From a virus, in the IMG/VR virus record IMGVR_UViG_3300009183_000098, positions 1-62,836 of that record: DNA of 62,836 nt; one strand, 5' to 3'. The position numbers and the translations under genes are program-made. The notes beneath the pieces are model-generated. The model did no database searches. It worked only from the letters and a program-made list of their open reading frames with translations, and had not been told where the DNA came from. This document shows positions 31,961-58,224 of the stretch, in pieces (position 1 is the first letter of the stretch; the number at the start of each line of letters is the position of its first letter).

Positions 31961-34810
31961 ATGGCAGGATTTGATGATAGTGCACAGTATATTGAGGCAC
32001 AGAAATTAAAAGCAGAGCTTACTGCTGCTATGAACAGCGCAAGAAGTATGGCGAGTGCTATGCAGGGTGTTACTAGTGCGTTATCACAACATCAGACGGG
32101 TATACTAAAAGATGTAGCATCATTGATACAACGTCAAGCTCAATTTAATCAACAACGTCGATTAAAACAACAAGAAATGCAAATGACGGAACTTGAAATT
32201 TCTGCTGCAAAAAAACGTTTGCAAATTTCAAGACAAAGTACTCAGCAAATGGAAGATGCACTTGATGCTGCAGTGGCTGCTGGAGAAAGTGAAGAAAGAC
32301 TGTCGGCATTACGGGAAAGGTTTTATGCTGCTAAAGTCAAAGATGAATTAGCTGATCAAAATATCACAATTCGTTTGGCACAGGTTAAAAAAGATCAAGT
32401 CACACAACTAAAAAAACTGCCATATGCACAAATTGCAACGGCAGCTGCCGATTTAACAACGGCAATGAAAAATATTACACAACAGATTAATAAAACACAA
32501 GAACAGTTTGGTATTGCTGCAGGACAAGCTGCAAATCTCAAAGTAGACAATATCGTATCAAGTTTTAACAGTTATGTAGAATCGGCAAAATCTTTATTCA
32601 GCGGAAAACCAGAGTTCGGCGTTTCTGCCGAAATGATCGAAGGTGCGCAAGCCGCGTATCAAAATGAATTTGGTGGTATATTAACGACTGGCGCTGCCAA
32701 AGATTTGGCAATGCAAGCACGTACAATGGGTGTTACTGCGGAACAATTAACAAAAGCTCGTCGTGTATTCACGGCGCAGTCGTTAGGTAACGTTGCAGAA
32801 GCAAAAAAATCACAAGATAAATTTATTGCGGAATTTGCCAAGAAAGGATTGACATCAAAAGATGCAATGCAGGCTATCTCGCAATATTCAGAATTATTAG
32901 CACGTAATGGTACACGATTTGCACAATCATTCACTCGTGCTGCTGCAGACGCAAAGAAAATTGGAGTTGATTTAAATAAAGTTAGTCAGTTCGGTGATAG
33001 TCTCATTAGTGATTTTGAGGGATTCTTAGAAGGTCAAGCTGGGCTTGGGGCAATGGGATTCAACCTTGACTCAAATAGATTGGCACAGATTTCCGAAACT
33101 GGTAGTGATGCAGATTTATTTAATGAACTACGGTCGCAATTGGCCAGTACTGGAAAGGATATCACTAAACTTCGTAGATCAGAACGACTTGAATTAGAAT
33201 CGGCGTTTGGTATGAGTATCAGTGAAATGCAAAAATTGGCCGGTGAAACGCCTGACGGAGATACAAAAAGTCCAGAGGAATTGCAAGCAGATGCAAACGG
33301 ATTATTAACTCGACTTGCTGTGGGCATGGATTTAATGACCAAATTATTAAGTGCCATTTCAACGGGTGTATTGGCGTTGATTGCATTTAATACTGGAGTA
33401 ACTGCATTAGCAACAGGGGGTATAGCAGGAAGTATTGCTGCTGCATTACTTCCAATTGCTGCTGGTATTGCGACAATTGCCGCAGTGGTTGCGTTTTGGA
33501 AAATGGGTTCCAGTGAAATTGATAAAGGAAAAGAGTTATACAAATCTGGAGAAAAAGGGAAAGGCATCGCAGCTGGAGCACTAGGAGGGGGATTGATGGG
33601 AGGTGTCGCTGCAGCCGCTGGGTTGGCAATTGCAGGAGTTATTGCTGGCATGACCGGTGGCCTAGCAATACCTGTTATTGCCGGTCTGGCCCCAGCTATT
33701 ATGGGCGGTTCTATGGCTGCAGGCGCAGGACTCGGAGGTTATAGTGCTACGAAAGGTGATGACGTAGTATCCCAAACTGGCTATGGTAAACGTTCCTTGG
33801 TAACACCATCGGGTGTGATTGCATTAAATAATAAAGATAATATCATTGCGTATGCAGATGATTTAGACGGTACGAAAAAACTACCATATGGGTCTATTGC
33901 AAAGAAAGCCGTTGAAAAATACGAACAAATTGATGTATTTAAAAAACAAGTAAATGATACCTTTGCTCAATTAATTTCACCGTCTGGTGGATTTGGTCAA
34001 ATTTCAAAATTTCTTAACAAAGATTTGGGAGCTGCAGCCACTAATAAAGTGATGAGTGGAAAAGTTGGAGGGGCAATTGCTAAAGCCCAAGAACTGAAGG
34101 TAGGTGGCACTAGCGGATTACTTTCCATGGCGCAAAACAAGTTTGGTGATATCTTCGGTGGTAAGGCCGGTGGCGCAATGTCTAGTGTAAGTAATCTATT
34201 CACAGGTGGTGGTTCAACATCAAGTAATTTGATGAGTATGGCAACTAAGATTCCTGGCCTTGGTGGATTACTCGGAAAAGCTACGGGATTATTAGGTGGC
34301 GGTGGATTAAAAGGAGTGGCCGGAAGCTTACTTGGAAAAGTAGGATTGGGTAGTCTTGGCGGTAGTTTATTGGGCGGACCAATGGGATTGGCGGGTTCGT
34401 TGGCGGCACCATTACTCAAGAAAATTCCATTAGTTGGTGGTGCTCTTGCGTCAATTGCGGGTGGACCCGGTAAGTTGGTGGGTAGTGCATTGGGTAAGAT
34501 CGGTGGATTATTTGGGAAGAAGAAGGCTCCCGCAGTTTCTGCAATGGGCGCAATGATGCCTGACATGGGAAATATGATGTCGATGCTTCCATTCCTCTCT
34601 GGAGCACAATCTGCAGCAGCACAAGGTACTACACAACCACAAGCACAAATTTCAGTAGACACTTCTGGTATAGAAAAGCAACTGAATAATTTCATCAATG
34701 CACTCCAAGGTATACAGATTCATATGGATGGAGCAAAGGTTGGAAAAGCATTAGTAAATAGTAATGACGCCGCATCATCACTCGGCGTGTTCCGTGAACA
34801 GTCCCGTTAA
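31961..34810 (+). CDS. 29: Tape measure protein (gp29-like)
   Basis: 949 aa. The N-terminal third is helical and Gln/Ala-rich; a central Gly/Ala hydrophobic zone (about 470-590) contains membrane-like segments (LLTRLAVGMDLMTKLLSAIS, GVAAAAGLAIAGVIAGMTGG), and a conserved motif DDVVSQTGYGKRSLVTPSG with IALNNKDNIIAYADDL follows, as in tape measures of T4-like phages. The rest is Gly-rich (LLGKATGLLGGGG). It sets tail length and is ejected with DNA. Much longer than T4 gp29 (590 aa), implying a longer tail. Confidence 0.9.
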   Translation: MAGFDDSAQYIEAQKLKAELTAAMNSARSMASAMQGVTSALSQHQTGILKDVASLIQRQAQFNQQRRLKQQEMQMTELEISAAKKRLQISRQSTQQMEDALDAAVAAGESEERLSALRERFYAAKVKDELADQNITIRLAQVKKDQVTQLKKLPYAQIATAAADLTTAMKNITQQINKTQEQFGIAAGQAANLKVDNIVSSFNSYVESAKSLFSGKPEFGVSAEMIEGAQAAYQNEFGGILTTGAAKDLAMQARTMGVTAEQLTKARRVFTAQSLGNVAEAKKSQDKFIAEFAKKGLTSKDAMQAISQYSELLARNGTRFAQSFTRAAADAKKIGVDLNKVSQFGDSLISDFEGFLEGQAGLGAMGFNLDSNRLAQISETGSDADLFNELRSQLASTGKDITKLRRSERLELESAFGMSISEMQKLAGETPDGDTKSPEELQADANGLLTRLAVGMDLMTKLLSAISTGVLALIAFNTGVTALATGGIAGSIAAALLPIAAGIATIAAVVAFWKMGSSEIDKGKELYKSGEKGKGIAAGALGGGLMGGVAAAAGLAIAGVIAGMTGGLAIPVIAGLAPAIMGGSMAAGAGLGGYSATKGDDVVSQTGYGKRSLVTPSGVIALNNKDNIIAYADDLDGTKKLPYGSIAKKAVEKYEQIDVFKKQVNDTFAQLISPSGGFGQISKFLNKDLGAAATNKVMSGKVGGAIAKAQELKVGGTSGLLSMAQNKFGDIFGGKAGGAMSSVSNLFTGGGSTSSNLMSMATKIPGLGGLLGKATGLLGGGGLKGVAGSLLGKVGLGSLGGSLLGGPMGLAGSLAAPLLKKIPLVGGALASIAGGPGKLVGSALGKIGGLFGKKKAPAVSAMGAMMPDMGNMMSMLPFLSGAQSAAAQGTTQPQAQISVDTSGIEKQLNNFINALQGIQIHMDGAKVGKALVNSNDAASSLGVFREQSR

Positions 34811-36771: not shown

Positions 36772-37035
36772 ATGCCACGCTATCAAAATAATATAATCGT
36801 AAAAAAAACAGATGAGGGCGCACGATATTATACGTCTGCAATTCCCACCGACCCTCTAGAAGAACAGATCGAATATAATTATAAGGCACGTATGGGTGAT
36901 AGGTGGGATACCATTGCTTACAAATATTTAGGATCGGCAACATTGTGGTATGTTGTCGCAAATGCGAATAATGGACTGAACGGCTCTATATTTATTAAGC
37001 CGGGAACAATTATCACGATACCTCAAAACTATTAA
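36772..37035 (+). CDS. 53: Baseplate wedge protein with LysM-like fold, gp53-like
   Basis: 87 aa. The second half, MGDRWDTIAYKYLGSATLWYVVANANN, written here as MGDRWDTIAYKYLG and LWYVVANANN, then FIKPGTIITIP, is the LysM-like module shared by gp53 and gpX-type tail proteins. It starts 3 nt after the gp48-like gene. In T4, gp53 locks the wedges into the baseplate ring. T4 gp53 is longer (196 aa); this protein is close to the LysM module alone. Confidence 0.7.
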   Translation: MPRYQNNIIVKKTDEGARYYTSAIPTDPLEEQIEYNYKARMGDRWDTIAYKYLGSATLWYVVANANNGLNGSIFIKPGTIITIPQNY

Positions 37036-37041
37036 AATACT

Positions 37042-40000
37042 ATGGCACATGATCAAGGGTCTTTTGACTACAAAGTAATAAATGAAAATATAAGTAAATT
37101 GTTGGATGCACGATCTGAACTGGATAATACGATTCAAGTTTCCATGCCGTTCATCAGAGCCACCACTACACTTCAATTACCCCAACTCGGCGCTGGTAAT
37201 ATTGGGTTTACTTTGGGGCTACATGCTATAGATGAAGATGTACGATATGAAGATATGTACGCATCAGTAGACGGTGAAATGCCATTAATTGGATATACGT
37301 ATACAGCAGACGGAAAACCTAAACGAGTATACGCAACCGATCCAAACGATCAAATAATATCAGATGTATTTGACACGCAAGGTCTATTATATAAAACAAC
37401 GAACTTTGTTAGAATTCCACCGCCGGGTATTACTAAAGCTACTGTTAGTAGAGCTAAGAACGGTGTGTTAGCAATGGCTACATTGGAAATTTCCGTCCCG
37501 TCACTTGTGCAACTGGAAAATCTACACCGAACATTTTTAGTTCCTGGTGTTGGTATGATTTTAGAATGGGGACAACAATTTGCCGCAGAGTTACAGCCAA
37601 GTTTAGGAGAATTACCGGACATATCTACAAATTTATTTCCGTGGCATGATCGTGCTAAACTTATGGAAATCTTAAATAAATTGGCAACTAGTCAATTAGG
37701 ACTAAAAGAAATTTTAGATGATTATGCGTATGCATCACAAGGTCAATATATGTGGATGTTTGGTCGTGTGGCAAATTTTAGTACTAAATCCAATTCCGAT
37801 GGATCATTTAATTGCACGGTAAAAATTGTAGGCCCGTCAGAAGATTCATTTGCATATTCCACACAAAACACAATAATTCCGTCAAAAGACTCCAGCACAG
37901 CGTATTTTTGTGCAGGCGATATCAATAGTGTTTCGTCATACTTCACAGAAACCGTTCCCGGCGTCAATTTCAAAACGTTGTTGGATGACACGTTAAAGGG
38001 TGGTCCTTGGCAACAACACGTACAAATTCTGGTAGGTGGAAATAAGAAAGCGGGAGAACCTACGGCAACAGAACAAAGCCCAGTTATAAGTCAAAATAGT
38101 TTTGCGGACGCAGAAGATGCATATTTCATAACATGGAGATTTTTTGTTAATGTAGTATTGAATAGTTCCAATAAAAATTACCCAGGACTGAAATATCTTT
38201 TTAGTACGATCATGAGCGATAAAGAACTGGAAAAAGTAGGATTACTACTGCCGTATGCAACTGGCGATGATCGAAAAAATACAACCGTAGACAAATTACA
38301 GTATATAAACGATCCAATGGAATCATATGTTGGTATGAATAAGTTTTTACGATCTATTGATCCGTCTACGTTAATTATTGTTAATGACAAGGCAGCACAA
38401 TTAGCACAGGCAAACCCACAGTATAATATACCAACTTCGGAAGTAAAATTTTTTGAGCCAACTACAGAAACAAAAAAGTTTTATGAACGTGGATTGTTTG
38501 AAGAGTCTACTAAAGCAGACGAAATAGCACAAGATCGTGGATTTTTAAGTTCCGGTGTGTGGTTAAACCACAAGGCAGTCGCGGAATGTATGTTAGGCAG
38601 TACTACCATCCTCCGCGGCATTGTAAGTTTATTGGAACGTATGAATCACGCAACATTAAACTATTGGAAATTAGCAATAGATTACGCAGAACCTATGAAA
38701 GGATCTGAACATTCATTTAATTACATGGTGGTAGATGCTAATTTCAGAGAAAGTTCTGATCGAGCGGTGTCAAAGTTTATAGATAACGTTCACACATTTA
38801 ACAAATATGTTCGTGTTGACAGTACTACGGGTAAATTGATAGGATCAGAATTAACTGAATGTTCTATTGATTTATCGTTACCGAAACGATTATTTACACA
38901 AATTGCTACGTTGGGATTGGTACAACCCGAAGATATGCAGAAAATTTCGGATGCCGGCAAGACCAAAGACGAGTTGGCAGAAGAAGCAGCTGCCGCAGAC
39001 AAACCCGTTACTGGACCGACCAAGCCACCAAAAATATCTGATCCAAATGATACCTTGCGGGAAATGTTTGCTACTACGATCTTGGCCGGTGGGTCAAAAG
39101 GAAATTACGATGACAATATCCAAGGTCCGGATATCACAATACTTCCAAAAACTGCTCGCGCAGCACAGTTGAAGGCAAGTGGAGTGTGTGGGAAAGCTAA
39201 CACACAGACTACCGCAAATACTGCTGGCGTTGGACAAAAGCCGGGTGCAATTGATCCTTCTGCAAATCTCAACGGTAAAAGTGCAGATGAATTAAAAAAA
39301 GAGCAAGAGAACGCAAAGAAAATATTAGAAACTGATGTATGTAAAAAATGTCAAACGTGTCCACCACCAAAAGCGCCACCAGTTACTACACAACCAACGA
39401 ATAAGAAATTATCCCAATTAACGATATCAGAAGTATTATCTGTACAAAAACCTGCTGGTACTGTTCTTGCAGTCGGTAAATATCAAGCAATTCCTGTTAC
39501 GTTTAAAGCGTGGATTTCGGCACAGAAAATTCCAACGGATACTATATTTGATAGTTCTGCGCAAGAAAAATTGGGTGATTGGTTAATTATTGGTAAACGA
39601 CCGAAGGTGGGAAGATTTGTTAATGGAGATGCATCTATAACAATAGAAGATGCGCAATTAGAATTAGCAAAAGAATTTGCATCAATCCCAGTTCCATATA
39701 AAGTTACTAGGCCCGCCGGAGCAGCATCAAAATCTGACCCAGGAGCTGTGCTTGAAGCAGGGCAATCATATTATTACGGAATAGCAGGAAATAAATCCAC
39801 GGCAAGTTCTGCAAAATATCAAGAAGCATTACGTATTGCCAGGCAGAATAAAAGTTTACAGTCGTTAAAAGAGTTTATTGCAAAGGGTGAAGGAAATTAT
39901 GACGCGTTGAATAGAGGTATTGCAGGAGATACTAGGTTAGACAGCACAGAATATTATGCAGCACTTAATCAACGTAAACTATCTACGCCCAGTACTACTA

Positions 40001-40614
40001 GTACTACCAAAGTGTGTAGTGACGATGCATATCTAGAAATTGCGCAATTAAAAAATAGTGGATTGCCATCATTTGACAATTTTTCACTACAAAATAAAAT
40101 TGATGCTGGGAAAAAAGAATGTGGTGAATGTATAAAAGCAATAACTCTACTAACACAAACTAATATAGTTATTGCAGCACAAGATAAGGCAACAAAAGCA
40201 GCAGAAAAAGCAATCAGAGATTTTCCTGGCATGAATAGAATATTTCGATATGTAGAAATATTTCCAGATATGATGGTTGCAGAAATTACAGATTCCGCCA
40301 ACGGTCAGTTTGCCAATGCATTTGGTGCATCTCCTGGTGCGTTATCAATATCGGGTGACATTGCTATGCCTGGTATAGCAGGATTGCGTGTAGGCGAATT
40401 ATTTTGGATTGATCGCATTCCTACCTTTTATAAGGCATACGGCGCATTTCAGATTATGGGCGTTGAAGATACTATTGGTAGAGATGGGTGGACGACTAAA
40501 GTACATTCAATCTTTAATTATTTGGGAACTAATTGGAAAGTAGCAATGGCGGAAAAATTTAGAATTGCTAAAGCTGCTCAATCACCAAGTATTACTGCGC
40601 CGCGGAGTATATAA
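37042..40614 (+). CDS. Giant baseplate hub protein with embedded, apparently permuted lysozyme domain
   Basis: 1190 aa. The N-terminal 620 residues (MPFIRATTTLQLPQLGAGNIG, KATVSRAKNGVLAMATLEIS, then VPGVGMILEWGQ) form a hub-like structural region, comparable in role to T4 gp27/gp5. A linker holds CKKCQTCPPPK (about 770-780). Residues about 788-985 are a muramidase-like domain: LTISEVLSVQ, AVGKYQAIPVTFKAW, FDSSAQEKLGDWL, GKRPKVGRF, LAKEFASIP, YYYGIAGNKS, and finally FIAKGEGNYDALNRGIAGDT with a candidate catalytic Glu at 950. In relatives this last segment comes first, so the domain looks circularly permuted. The final 130 residues (YVEIFPDMMVAEITD, GLRVGELFWIDRIPTFYKAY) are hub-like again. It would digest peptidoglycan during tail penetration. 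Confidence 0.78.
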   Translation: MAHDQGSFDYKVINENISKLLDARSELDNTIQVSMPFIRATTTLQLPQLGAGNIGFTLGLHAIDEDVRYEDMYASVDGEMPLIGYTYTADGKPKRVYATDPNDQIISDVFDTQGLLYKTTNFVRIPPPGITKATVSRAKNGVLAMATLEISVPSLVQLENLHRTFLVPGVGMILEWGQQFAAELQPSLGELPDISTNLFPWHDRAKLMEILNKLATSQLGLKEILDDYAYASQGQYMWMFGRVANFSTKSNSDGSFNCTVKIVGPSEDSFAYSTQNTIIPSKDSSTAYFCAGDINSVSSYFTETVPGVNFKTLLDDTLKGGPWQQHVQILVGGNKKAGEPTATEQSPVISQNSFADAEDAYFITWRFFVNVVLNSSNKNYPGLKYLFSTIMSDKELEKVGLLLPYATGDDRKNTTVDKLQYINDPMESYVGMNKFLRSIDPSTLIIVNDKAAQLAQANPQYNIPTSEVKFFEPTTETKKFYERGLFEESTKADEIAQDRGFLSSGVWLNHKAVAECMLGSTTILRGIVSLLERMNHATLNYWKLAIDYAEPMKGSEHSFNYMVVDANFRESSDRAVSKFIDNVHTFNKYVRVDSTTGKLIGSELTECSIDLSLPKRLFTQIATLGLVQPEDMQKISDAGKTKDELAEEAAAADKPVTGPTKPPKISDPNDTLREMFATTILAGGSKGNYDDNIQGPDITILPKTARAAQLKASGVCGKANTQTTANTAGVGQKPGAIDPSANLNGKSADELKKEQENAKKILETDVCKKCQTCPPPKAPPVTTQPTNKKLSQLTISEVLSVQKPAGTVLAVGKYQAIPVTFKAWISAQKIPTDTIFDSSAQEKLGDWLIIGKRPKVGRFVNGDASITIEDAQLELAKEFASIPVPYKVTRPAGAASKSDPGAVLEAGQSYYYGIAGNKSTASSAKYQEALRIARQNKSLQSLKEFIAKGEGNYDALNRGIAGDTRLDSTEYYAALNQRKLSTPSTTSTTKVCSDDAYLEIAQLKNSGLPSFDNFSLQNKIDAGKKECGECIKAITLLTQTNIVIAAQDKATKAAEKAIRDFPGMNRIFRYVEIFPDMMVAEITDSANGQFANAFGASPGALSISGDIAMPGIAGLRVGELFWIDRIPTFYKAYGAFQIMGVEDTIGRDGWTTKVHSIFNYLGTNWKVAMAEKFRIAKAAQSPSITAPRSI

Positions 40615-41024: not shown

Positions 41025-42317
41025 ATGGTTATTAATAGTTATGAACAATATAACGAGTTAAAAACACGGATGGATCGGGAGATGCATATTTGCACACCGA
41101 TCTTTCGTGATTTATACTATCATGTCATGGAAAATGAATTGTTATGTGTATCTATAACATTCATGAACGGTGAATCATTTGTAGTATCTATTAGTCATGA
41201 GGATGCCCCACGATTTGAAATCCCAGTGGGTAATGCATCATGTTTTACGGCAAACTCTAAAGTAGTATCTACACAGTGTATTGATATTGCGGCAATTGCT
41301 TATATTCATCAATTGAATGTACCAGTAGTAAAAGACTTTTTTACTACATATATTACTGATACGCATAATATGTTTAATAATATGCGGAATGTGAATCGGA
41401 TCATTCCATTAACGACATGGGACAGTATTCTCACTAACTATAATACAGAATTATTACCCCTCGTAAGTCTATATGAACCATCTAGGCAATACACCTATAT
41501 GCACGAATTATTGACCACACTAAAGGATATAGAAAGTGCGGGATTGTGTGTAGATAGAACATTGCTGTCTCAACATTTTTCGTCTGATACAAATCGTGCG
41601 TTCAAAGATAACATGGTATATACGGAATATAATCCATATACTGCAACGGGTCGTCCAAGTAATAGATTTGGAGGGATAAACTTTGCCGCATTAAATAAGT
41701 CGGATGGTTCCCGTGATAGTTTTATTAGTAGATATCCGTTCGGATCATTGGTGCAAATGGATTTTGAAGCATATCATCTGCGATTGATGGCAAACGAATT
41801 GAGAGTCACATTACCGAGTGAACAATCTATTCATACGGAACTTGCCAAAATCTATTTTAATACATCAGATATTACGGAAGAAATGTATGCAGAAAGTAAA
41901 CGGCGAACGTTTGAAGTCATGTATGGAATGAGCAGAGAAACATATAATTTTGAATTATTTGAAAAGATTCATGAACATAGAAAACAATATGAACATACAA
42001 ATACCATCGAATTACCCAGTGGTATTGCGGTTGATGTGGGTATGCCGAATGCAAGTAAACTATTCAATTATTATGTACAATCGTTAGAGATGGTGAGAAC
42101 ATTACCGAAACTCACACGTATTATTGACCTCATAAAAAATACTACGAATCATTTGGTGTTGTATACATATGATAGTATATTGCTGGATATGCAATTCATG
42201 GATACTGAATTATTACAACAGATACAAGACATTTTAGAAGAAAACAAAAAATTCCCAGTCCGTATATATTCGGGAAATACATACGGTAATATTAAGGAGA
42301 TACATTTCCTAAAATAG
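41025..42317 (+). CDS. Small, degenerate family A DNA polymerase-like protein
   Basis: 430 aa. Residues 200-390 have the family A core: YNPYTATGRPSNRFGGINFA, SLVQMDFEAYHLRLMA with motif A Asp246, SKRRTFEVMYGM with the O-helix Lys292 and YG300-301, and LVLYTYDSILLDM with motif C Asp383. The usual HDE of motif C is YDS, and the first Arg of motif B is missing. The N-terminal 150 residues look like a shrunken 3'-5' exonuclease fold (LLCVSITFMNGESFVV) without clear catalytic residues; LLTTLKDIESAGLCVD matches the pol I palm entry. Both metal-binding Asp remain, so it may be active. It is additional to the family B replicase gp43 at 55699. Confidence 0.82.
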   Translation: MVINSYEQYNELKTRMDREMHICTPIFRDLYYHVMENELLCVSITFMNGESFVVSISHEDAPRFEIPVGNASCFTANSKVVSTQCIDIAAIAYIHQLNVPVVKDFFTTYITDTHNMFNNMRNVNRIIPLTTWDSILTNYNTELLPLVSLYEPSRQYTYMHELLTTLKDIESAGLCVDRTLLSQHFSSDTNRAFKDNMVYTEYNPYTATGRPSNRFGGINFAALNKSDGSRDSFISRYPFGSLVQMDFEAYHLRLMANELRVTLPSEQSIHTELAKIYFNTSDITEEMYAESKRRTFEVMYGMSRETYNFELFEKIHEHRKQYEHTNTIELPSGIAVDVGMPNASKLFNYYVQSLEMVRTLPKLTRIIDLIKNTTNHLVLYTYDSILLDMQFMDTELLQQIQDILEENKKFPVRIYSGNTYGNIKEIHFLK

Positions 42318-55698: not shown

Positions 55699-58224
55699 AT
55701 GGCGTATCAAAATATTTTTATAGATTCAACATCCGACGAACAAACAGTATATATCTGGGATGATGCACAGGGACTTATTACCCTACCATTGTCAGAATTT
55801 AATTATGCATACGTCCGTGACCCGAAAGGAAAGTATATCAGTATGACGGGAGAACGCCTCAGTAAAACGAGGCGTTTCATCCGTGGTAACCCCAACGTAT
55901 TTGAAAGTGACCTTCCAAAAGAAACTCGCGTTCTTACGGATTTGTATTTGAATGAAGATATGCCGTCAGAAGGGAATATTATATTGTTTTTTGACATTGA
56001 GGTGTCAATGGAAAATGGTATTCCTAATACACAAAAACCAAATAATGAAATCACTTCTATTGCATTTTGTGATAATATTACCAATGAATATAGTGTATTA
56101 GTATTGGATAAATCTGGTGTATATGAAAATGTAACAAAGAATGGAGCAGCGGTTTATTTCTTTCAAACAGAAATGGATCTTCTTCATGCGTTTGTTAATC
56201 AGTACGAACAAATTACACCAACGATTATTACGGGGTGGAACAGTAATGGATTTGACGTACCGTATCTATATAATCGTATAAAGCAGATTTGTGGAGCCAG
56301 TATTGCCAATCGGCTTAGTCCTATCGGTAAAGTAAAATACTCTGATAGATTGGAACGTTATCGCGTTGCTGGCGTAAGCTCGCTAGATTACTTGGATTTA
56401 TATAAGAAATATACATATACTCAGCAACCTAACTATCGTCTTGATACAATTGGGCGATTGGAAGTAGGAATGGGTAAAGTAGATTATGATGGGTCTTTGG
56501 ACGATTTGTTTCGCGATGACCTAGAAAAATTTATTGAGTATAATTTGCAAGACGTTCGTATCATTGTTGATTTGGATAAAAAGCTAAAGCTTATCGACTT
56601 GGTTCGTGGTATCTGTCATCTTGGCCACGTACCATATGAAGATTATCCAATGGCATCACGCGTACTTGAGGGCACGATTGTTACCTATCTACATCGAAAA
56701 GGAATTATTGTTTCTGACAAACCAAAGGATAGTAAAGAAAAAATGGAAGCACTAGACCGCGGTGAAGAAGGATTTGTGGGCGCTTATGTACAAGAACCAG
56801 TTCCTGGATTATATGATTGGGTATATTCACTCGACTTACAATCACTGTACCCAAGTATCATTATGAGTTTGAATATCTCTCCAGAGACAAAGGTTGCTAA
56901 GGTATTGAACTTTGACATGGAAAAACATTTACGTAAAGAAATTGTTGCCTATGTGGTTCAAGAAATTGGCGATGAGATGACAGTGGAACTAGAGCATGAT
57001 GCCTTTGTTAATTTCTTAAAGGAAAATAATCTTACGATGGCATCGAACGGCGTGTTGTATAATACAGTAACGAAGGGTATTATCCCCGAAGTTTTAAATG
57101 AATGGTTTGCCAAACGTGTGGAGTATAAGAATCTCATGAAGAAGTATACTACAGAGGGTGATAAGGTGCAAGCAGCCTATTATGACCAACGCCAACATAT
57201 TCAGAAGATTTTCTTGAACTCATTGTATGGTGTGTTGGGGTTACCCGTGTTTCGTTTCTATGACGTTGACAATGCGGCCGCAGTAACATTGACGGGGCAA
57301 GATGTTATTAAGACTACTGCTAAGTTTATTAATAAAAAATATGAAAAGGTAACGGGTGAACAGAAAGACCATTGTGTATATGTTGATACTGACTCCGTAT
57401 ACTTTCCAGCAAAACCATTGTTTGTTGAAGGAAGTGCTGATGACCTTGCTTCCACGATTGGTATTGCCTATGACATGGAAAATACGTTGAATACATTCTA
57501 TGATTCTATGGCAAAGCGTATGTTCAATTGTGATGACCATAAGTTCCACATTAAGGGAGAAAGTGTCGCCAAGACGGGATTCTGGGTAGCTAAGAAGCGA
57601 TATGCACTAGATAAGGTATATGATTTGGAAACCCGCCAGAATGTCAGTAAACTCGTTGTAAAGGGATTGGATGTCGTAAGATCATCTTTTCCCAAAGCAT
57701 TTCGGGAATTCATGACGCAGATGTTGAAAGATATTTTGGGCAGAGTAGATAAGAACGAATTAGACGAGAAGATTCTTGCGTTAAAAACTTCATTGAAGAC
57801 TCGTCATTATTTAGAAGTTGCACGAAATACTTCGGCAAATAATATCAGTCAGTTTGCCGCAGGAGAGGGGGGTGGAGGAATCAACCGATTCAAGAAAGGA
57901 ACTCCTGCGCATATTAAAGCAGCAATCGTATACAATAGATTATTGACGCACTTTGGCATTAATAAACAATATGCGACTATCGCAGACGGGGAAAAGATTA
58001 AATACATGATGCTAAAACCAAATGATTTAAGAATAGAATCGTTAGCAGTAAAGGGTTATAACGATCCTCCACAAATTATGGATATGGTTACGGAATATAT
58101 TGACACTGATGCATTATTTGATAACGAATTGCGAAATAAACTACAAGATTTCTATACTGCACTTGGATATGGTATCTTACCAACCGATAAAAATTTAAAC
58201 GCATCGAACTTTTTCAGCTTCTGA
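55699..58224 (+). CDS. 43: Family B replicative DNA polymerase, gp43
   Basis: 841 aa (T4 gp43 is 898 aa). Exonuclease motif I IILFFDIEVSMENG near residue 100; motif II WNSNGFDVPYLYNRI; motif III YNLQDVRIIVDL; polymerase motif A SLDLQSLYPSIIMSLN; motif B IQKIFLNSLYGVLGLP; motif C YVDTDSVYFP. All catalytic acids for synthesis and proofreading are visible. No intein or intron interrupts it. Driven by a consensus early promoter and followed by an endonuclease gene. Confidence 0.97.
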   Translation: MAYQNIFIDSTSDEQTVYIWDDAQGLITLPLSEFNYAYVRDPKGKYISMTGERLSKTRRFIRGNPNVFESDLPKETRVLTDLYLNEDMPSEGNIILFFDIEVSMENGIPNTQKPNNEITSIAFCDNITNEYSVLVLDKSGVYENVTKNGAAVYFFQTEMDLLHAFVNQYEQITPTIITGWNSNGFDVPYLYNRIKQICGASIANRLSPIGKVKYSDRLERYRVAGVSSLDYLDLYKKYTYTQQPNYRLDTIGRLEVGMGKVDYDGSLDDLFRDDLEKFIEYNLQDVRIIVDLDKKLKLIDLVRGICHLGHVPYEDYPMASRVLEGTIVTYLHRKGIIVSDKPKDSKEKMEALDRGEEGFVGAYVQEPVPGLYDWVYSLDLQSLYPSIIMSLNISPETKVAKVLNFDMEKHLRKEIVAYVVQEIGDEMTVELEHDAFVNFLKENNLTMASNGVLYNTVTKGIIPEVLNEWFAKRVEYKNLMKKYTTEGDKVQAAYYDQRQHIQKIFLNSLYGVLGLPVFRFYDVDNAAAVTLTGQDVIKTTAKFINKKYEKVTGEQKDHCVYVDTDSVYFPAKPLFVEGSADDLASTIGIAYDMENTLNTFYDSMAKRMFNCDDHKFHIKGESVAKTGFWVAKKRYALDKVYDLETRQNVSKLVVKGLDVVRSSFPKAFREFMTQMLKDILGRVDKNELDEKILALKTSLKTRHYLEVARNTSANNISQFAAGEGGGGINRFKKGTPAHIKAAIVYNRLLTHFGINKQYATIADGEKIKYMMLKPNDLRIESLAVKGYNDPPQIMDMVTEYIDTDALFDNELRNKLQDFYTALGYGILPTDKNLNASNFFSF

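What the first reader, a model, noticed from the sequence alone, without database searches (positions are those of the whole stretch)
39403..39996. Circularly permuted lysozyme domain inside the hub protein
Seen: within the 1190-aa hub, segments LTISEVLSVQ, AVGKYQAIPVTFK, FDSSAQEKL, LAKEFASIP and YYYGIAGNKS are followed by FIAKGEGNYDALNRG. From knowledge of this muramidase type, the E-G-x-Y-N-x-x-NRG segment carrying the catalytic Glu is normally N-terminal to LT(I/L)xEV and GRYQ/GKYQ. Here it is C-terminal, at residue 950, and a KLS sequence occurs at both junctions (789-791 and near 983), as expected of a permutation by tandem duplication and trimming. The new termini are joined to hub sequence, so permutation may be what lets the enzyme sit in a loop of the hub.
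Basis: partly seen in the sequence, partly recalled or inferred. Interest (0 to 1): 0.85.

Follow-up and report, generated by a model that had tools for sequence, protein, structure and literature searches.

The report
Naturally circularly permuted phage tail lysozyme
A cell-wall-cutting enzyme built into a phage tail protein has its two ends re-cut so that the piece carrying the catalytic residue comes last instead of first, and this rearranged version arose once and has since been swapped between the tail proteins of different phages.

Summary
In the 1190-aa tail protein (37042-40614), a profile of canonical-order lysozymes matches in two swapped pieces: model positions 38-166 at residues 785-936 (110 bits), then positions 3-36 at 936-969 (27 bits). 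Rotating the domain restores one continuous match (143 bits; best shuffle 123). All 21 residues invariant in 13 canonical relatives are kept, including putative catalytic Glu950. AlphaFold2 gives a compact fold (pLDDT 87, pTM 0.83). Six distinct IMG/VR proteins are permuted; almost all surveyed relatives (30 automatically, 3 undecided) have canonical order. Permuted sequences form one clade (100/99), so the permutation probably arose once from the canonical form.

The second KLS exists only in this window, so it is not a duplication scar. Permutation is not needed for insertion: canonical versions also sit inside long proteins.

Related tail proteins carry DUF2272/CHAP, VanY/M15 or SLT hydrolases in the same slot, and the permuted cassette can be far more conserved (65%) than its carrier (29%): it moves between hubs. 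Activity, the hub assignment and any advantage of permutation are inferred. New variant of a known kind.

The parts
37042..40614 (+). Tail/baseplate hub-like protein, 1190 aa, carrying the permuted lysozyme
   Evidence: Open reading frame. Lies after a tape-measure-like ORF (31961-34810) and an 87-aa gpX/LysM-like baseplate protein (36772-37035); a similar gene order is seen in Flavobacterium phage immuto. No PHROG, Pfam or PDB match to known hubs outside the lysozyme; hhalign to T4 gp27 negative.
39394..39849 (+). Block A (aa 785-936): LTISEV-GKYQ-...-EFASIP-...-YYYGIAGNK, the part that is C-terminal in canonical relatives
   Evidence: HMM positions 38-166, 110 bits; 39-42% identity to the nearest canonical relatives
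39850..39861 (+). Short linker (aa 937-940, KSLQ) joining the former C-terminus to the former N-terminus
   Evidence: Between the two HMM hits and between predicted helices 143-156 and 160-170 of the model
39862..39957 (+). Block B (aa 941-972): SLKEFIAKGEGNYDALNRGIAGDT..., the segment with the putative catalytic Glu, N-terminal in canonical relatives
   Evidence: HMM positions 2-33, 23.8 bits; 3-36, 26.7 bits
39889..39891 (+). Codon of Glu950, putative catalytic acid, aligned to the SEG glutamate of lambda R
   Evidence: Invariant in 13 canonical and all 6 permuted sequences; hhalign column with lambda R
39946..39981 (+). Short C-terminal helix found only in permuted members (S/P-x-x-Y-Y/L-x-A-L/I), replacing the canonical GGIxxLTG loop
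   Evidence: Alignment; AF2 helix 189-200 with low confidence
39340..39360 (+). CKKCQTC (aa 767-773) framing the cassette on the N side
   Evidence: CxxC on both sides of the slot in 14 of 16 fused relatives, absent in split hub L102
40120..40131 (+). CGEC (aa 1027-1030) framing the cassette on the C side, about 40 aa before the C-terminal domain
40243..40611 (+). C-terminal domain (aa about 1068-1190) that resumes after the cassette
   Evidence: 85-87% identical in close relatives; present after every cassette type

Best explanation
Residues about 789-980 are one lysozyme-fold domain of the phage family seen in Syn19, S-CAM7, Celeribacter phage P12053L and standalone phage muramidases, distantly like lambda R. 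It is naturally circularly permuted: its old N- and C-termini are fused through a very short linker, and it has been re-opened in the loop after the NRG-AGDT segment. The halves fold together so that Glu950 (former first helix) sits in the cleft built with GKYQ and the following segments, and the domain cuts the glycan strands of peptidoglycan during tail penetration. It occupies an exchangeable enzyme slot of a large tail protein, most likely the baseplate hub. The permutation arose once from the canonical order and the permuted cassette has since been swapped between distantly related hubs. Shown: swapped order, single copy of each half, conserved key residues, monophyly, slot exchange. Predicted: the fold. 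Inferred: enzymatic activity, the hub assignment, use at cell entry, and any benefit of the new tether point near the active-site cleft.
For: Two non-collinear HMM hits and the rotation peak; pairwise BLASTP with swapped halves; 21 of 21 canonical invariant residues retained in window, L005, L006 and L033; AF2 pLDDT 87.4, pTM 0.83, secondary-structure order equal to the canonical model rotated, from an alignment in which only the six permuted rows join the halves. Foldseek against BFVD matches the family (P12053L, Syn19, S-CAM7) over about 150-165 of 202 columns at TMq 0.57-0.61, as a sequential aligner would give for a permuted domain. The canonical model matches the cyanophage A-1(L) hub 8kea (prob 1.00, TMq 0.58), whose authors name a lysozyme domain (PMC10966104). 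Order survey: 6 permuted, 30 canonical by the automatic rule, 3 undecided. Permuted clade 100/99. Slot content varies: DUF2272 in L016, VanY in L025, SLT in L020; cassette identity exceeds carrier identity (65% against 29% for L067, 52% against 29% for L009); the hub tree needs 4 changes of state, with 3 forced by starred branches.
Against: No activity data. The hub assignment is by gene order and architecture; profile comparison with T4 gp27 was negative. No coordinates were available to measure the Glu950 geometry or the distance between new termini. L009 lacks the N and G of the NRG segment, so not every permuted copy need be active. The canonical AF2 model was weak around the Glu loop (pLDDT below 50 at 19-35). 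The permuted model found nothing convincing in PDB.
Confidence: 0.86

Rival explanations
1. Permuted, but the halves complete each other between neighbouring subunits of a trimeric hub (domain swapping): block B of one chain docks on block A of the next.
For: Hubs of known contractile phages such as A-1(L) are trimers (PMC10966104).
Against: The linker between A and B is only about 4 residues and joins two confidently predicted helices (pTM 0.83 as a monomer), which favours closure within one chain; the split-ORF relatives L009 and L067 keep A and B together in one polypeptide.
Confidence: 0.08
2. The domain is correctly folded and permuted but no longer an enzyme; it serves as a structural or glycan-binding module of the tail.
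For: L009 has lost the conserved N and G of the NRG segment; for the A-1(L) hub the passages read report activity for the endoglucanase and peptidase domains rather than the lysozyme domain (PMC10966104).
Against: All family-invariant residues, including E950, are kept in the window, L005, L006 and L033; the same slot otherwise holds recognisable peptidoglycan hydrolases.
Confidence: 0.12
3. No permutation: block A is a truncated lysozyme and the EGNYDALNRG stretch is an unrelated look-alike.
For: Block B alone scores only 24-27 bits.
Against: Restoring it in front lifts the score by 29 bits, more than any of 500 shuffles; it keeps E, N and G of the family; six distinct proteins down to 51% identity share it at the same place.
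Confidence: 0.03
4. The permuted order is the ancestral one and canonical lysozymes are derived.
For: The tree is unrooted (drawn at the midpoint).
Against: Canonical order is shared by lambda R (collinear hhalign) and nearly all surveyed members from unrelated phages, while the permuted ones form one clade on a long stem.
Confidence: 0.03
5. Assembly artefact.
For: The data are metagenomic contigs.
Against: The same order in one open frame is seen in contigs of several separate IMG/VR data sets at 51-95% identity.
Confidence: 0.01

Closest known systems
Cyanophage and roseophage lysozyme family (Syn19 YP_004323852, S-CAM7 late control gene D protein, Celeribacter phage P12053L gp40; PHROG 37890)
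   Same: Homologous: 27-42% identity over block A, same EGxYxSxNRG, GKYQ, EFAS and YxGxxGN motifs, often inside long proteins of the tail region
   Different: Canonical order, Glu segment first; no C-terminal Y-Y-x-A-L helix
Lambda R endolysin (GH104 type)
   Same: Collinear profile alignment of E-G, GRYQ and WASL with the canonical family, P 3.5e-4; the record note of the Rhizobium phage Paso relative reports HHpred 99% to 1AM7
   Different: Distant (hhalign probability 37% against the single sequence), canonical order, lysis enzyme and not a tail part
A-1(L) hub gp15 (PDB 8KEA; PMC10966104)
   Same: Trimeric baseplate hub with built-in lysozyme and other hydrolase domains; the canonical model matches it
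   Different: Several hydrolases in one chain; order of that lysozyme domain not examined here beyond the Foldseek match
T4 gp5/gp27 tail lysozyme (from general knowledge)
   Same: Works like it: a muramidase carried by the central baseplate opens peptidoglycan at entry
   Different: T4 gp5 lysozyme is on a separate chain and has the canonical T4-type fold; the hub profile shows no similarity to gp27
Flavobacterium phage immuto hub-like protein (VanY at C-terminus)
   Same: Distant relative of the N-terminal hub part (30% over aa 82-267), similar gene order, also carries a peptidoglycan hydrolase
   Different: Hydrolase is appended at the C-terminus, not inserted before the last domain

Membership tests
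Natural circular permutation | Two homologous blocks in swapped linear order relative to relatives | tested here: met
Natural circular permutation | Blocks together cover the whole domain once, with nothing missing or doubled | tested here: met
   HMM 32/38-166 plus 2/3-33/36; one copy of each
Natural circular permutation | Same three-dimensional fold as the canonical form | tested here: inconclusive
   Confident model, same order of helices after rotation, block A matches canonical structures; no permutation-aware superposition possible without coordinates
Phage lysozyme family (Syn19/S-CAM7/P12053L type) | Residues invariant in canonical members: E, N, G, Q, VG-YQ, P, T, Q, KR, A, A, E, AS, G, Y, N | tested here: met
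   21 of 21 in the window
Phage lysozyme family (Syn19/S-CAM7/P12053L type) | Linear order Glu segment, LTxxEV, GKYQ | tested here: not met
   Permuted; it is a permuted homologue, not an ordinary member
GH104 / lambda R | Significant sequence relationship | tested here: inconclusive
   hhalign P 3.5e-4, probability 37% with a single lambda sequence
GH104 / lambda R | Lytic transglycosylase activity | not testable with these tools
   needs enzyme assay
gp27-like baseplate hub | Sequence or profile similarity to T4 gp27 | tested here: not met
   hhalign E 0.58; no PDB hit
gp27-like baseplate hub | Gene position in the tail module next to baseplate genes | tested here: met
   Next to a gpX/LysM-like baseplate gene and after the tape-measure-like ORF; similar order in immuto

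The most novel reading that the evidence does not exclude
The permutation is functional: by moving the tether from the outer ends of the enzyme to the loop beside its catalytic cleft, it lets the cassette be held closed or shielded in the assembled hub and released on contraction, and this advantage explains why only the permuted form of this lysozyme was found in this slot and why it has spread between hubs.
Probability: 0.2. Interest if true: 0.75.

Novelty: new variant of a known kind. Interest (0 to 1): 0.58.

Why it matters
No naturally permuted member of the lysozyme-like phage muramidases was found in the paper library searched (open-licence papers only). Here canonical relatives and several permuted homologues exist side by side, so the effect of permutation on folding, stability and activity can be tested on natural pairs. 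The exchangeable enzyme slot framed by cysteine pairs shows how phages swap wall-cutting enzymes in their tails.

Tried and rejected
KLS as a duplication scar: rejected, private to this window. A second Glu segment before residue 788: none. Permutation required for insertion: rejected by canonical internal copies and by permuted copies that start an ORF. Pfam on hub and cassette: nothing above cut-off. PDB by sequence: no true match; the antibody hits are chance matches to a short EW-S-Y-G-YY stretch. Foldseek PDB with the permuted model: nothing convincing. Scan of the genome collection for permuted relatives: none. Hub against T4 gp27: negative. Literature for permuted phage lysozymes: nothing found; most hits for 'circularly permuted' concern phage genomes.

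Full report
What was checked. The hub-like ORF is 37042-40614 (1190 aa). Relatives of aa 788-938 in public phage records carry the E-G-x-x-x-S-x-N-x-G segment before the LTxxEV/GKYQ part (Syn19, P12053L, Sf-CH1b, S-CAM7), whereas the window carries it after.

Is it a permutation? A profile HMM was built from 14 canonical-order relatives. Against the native hub it gives two hits in swapped order: HMM 38-166 at aa 785-936 (110.4 bits) and HMM 3-36 at aa 936-969 (26.7 bits). Rotating the domain through all start points (steps of four residues) gives a peak at SLQSLKEF... with one continuous alignment (143.2 bits; native 114.3). Controls: 500 shuffles of the moved piece reach at most 123.3 bits and other 45-residue pieces of the hub at most 121.0. 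L005, L009 and L033 behave the same; L067 shows the two swapped hits but no clear rotation peak, perhaps because the piece tested carried extra tail residues. BLASTP against a single canonical protein shows both swapped segments. After rotation, all 21 positions invariant in 13 canonical sequences are conserved in the window: E950, N957, G959, Q802, V811, G812, Y814, Q815, P818, T820, Q841, K852, R853, A871, A876, E878, A880, S881, G907, Y911, N917.

Fold. AlphaFold2 on an alignment in which only the six permuted rows connect the two halves (canonical relatives entered as separate half fragments) gives pLDDT 87.4 and pTM 0.83. The helix before the moved junction (143-156) and the Glu helix (160-170) are separated by three residues, so the old termini must be adjacent. 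The canonical member L011 gives the same main helices in unrotated order (pLDDT 77) and matches the A-1(L) baseplate hub 8KEA (probability 1.00), in which a lysozyme domain was named (PMC10966104). The permuted model finds canonical family members in BFVD over about three quarters of its length and nothing convincing in PDB, which fits an aligner bound to sequence order.

Distribution and polarity. A six-frame survey of all loci fetched by then finds six distinct permuted proteins (window, L005, L006, L009, L033, L067). The automatic rule labels 30 distinct proteins canonical; three more (L057, L059, L120) match block A or part of the model only, and the fragments L010 and L065 are too short to call. 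L009 was scored 'A only' by the rule because its second hit runs from HMM 4 to 57, but that hit lies after block A, so it is permuted too. A tree of block A puts the permuted sequences in one clade (100/99). Lambda R aligns collinearly with the canonical order. The permuted form is therefore most likely derived, once.

The slot. In relatives of the same tail protein (46-91% identity in the N-terminal part) the same place, between an upstream CxxC and a downstream CxxC (14 of 16 fused hubs), holds other hydrolases: DUF2272 (L016, whose hub part is 86% identical to the window's), VanY (L025) and SLT (L020) by Pfam. M15-like (L018, L019, L030, L078, L081, L083, L096) and CHAP-like (L080, L101) enzymes are assigned by motif only. 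The permuted cassette of L067 is 65% identical to the window's while the carriers are 29% identical; for L009 it is 52% against 29%. The hub tree needs four changes of cassette state, at least three forced by well-supported branches, with the DUF2272 hub L016 nested among permuted ones. The cassette therefore moves between carriers. In L009 and L067 the hub is split: the N-part ends in a stop (TAA, or TAATAA) and a second ORF in the same frame starts at once with the permuted lysozyme, followed by the C-terminal domain.

Mechanism. Most likely the domain is an entry muramidase carried by the baseplate hub. The permutation places the tether in the loop next to the catalytic segment instead of at the enzyme's outer ends. 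Whether this matters functionally is unknown; simple insertion does not require it, since canonical relatives are also internal.

What is not shown. Enzyme activity; the hub assignment beyond gene order and architecture (hhalign to T4 gp27 negative); the route of permutation (no tandem intermediate seen); absence of earlier description outside the searched open-licence papers. The phage itself is a contractile-tailed T4-like virus (sheath) whose capsid protein is closest to Flavobacterium phage immuto, an uncultured phage and Microcystis phage Mel-JY01 (51-56%); the host is not known.

Noticed in passing
window 39340-39360 and 40120-40131; relatives: The enzyme slot is framed by CxxC motifs on both sides in 14 of 16 fused hubs, whatever enzyme is inserted, and they are absent from the split hub L102; possibly a zinc or disulfide clamp at the base of the insert.
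   Followed up: partly
L016, L018, L019, L020, L025, L030, L078, L080, L081, L083, L096, L101: The same slot carries unrelated peptidoglycan hydrolases (DUF2272/CHAP-like, VanY/M15-like, SLT) in relatives, even between hubs 86% identical: a natural cassette-exchange site.
   Followed up: yes
L009:5960-6000 and L102:8010-8035: In two relatives the hub is cut into two ORFs in the same frame by one or two in-frame TAA codons, with an ATG directly after, at the start of the permuted lysozyme.
   Followed up: partly
L009:6480-6540: This permuted copy has lost the conserved N and G of the NRG segment while keeping the Glu, so it may have altered activity.
   Followed up: no
window 41025-42317: A 430-aa ORF resembles family A DNA polymerase (PF00476, E 2e-7, below cut-off) although a T4-like DNA polymerase is at 55699-58224; compact, with YDS where HDE is usual by eye. 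A similar ORF is in L009 (7658-8968).
   Followed up: no
L071:4582-8967: A 1462-aa ORF in a 306-kb contig has a canonical lysozyme of this family and, by eye, a second lysozyme-like stretch and an M15-like HIHV motif.
   Followed up: no
L111:3255-6071: The immuto hub-like protein carries VanY at its C-terminus instead of inside, so enzyme position in these hubs is variable.
   Followed up: partly
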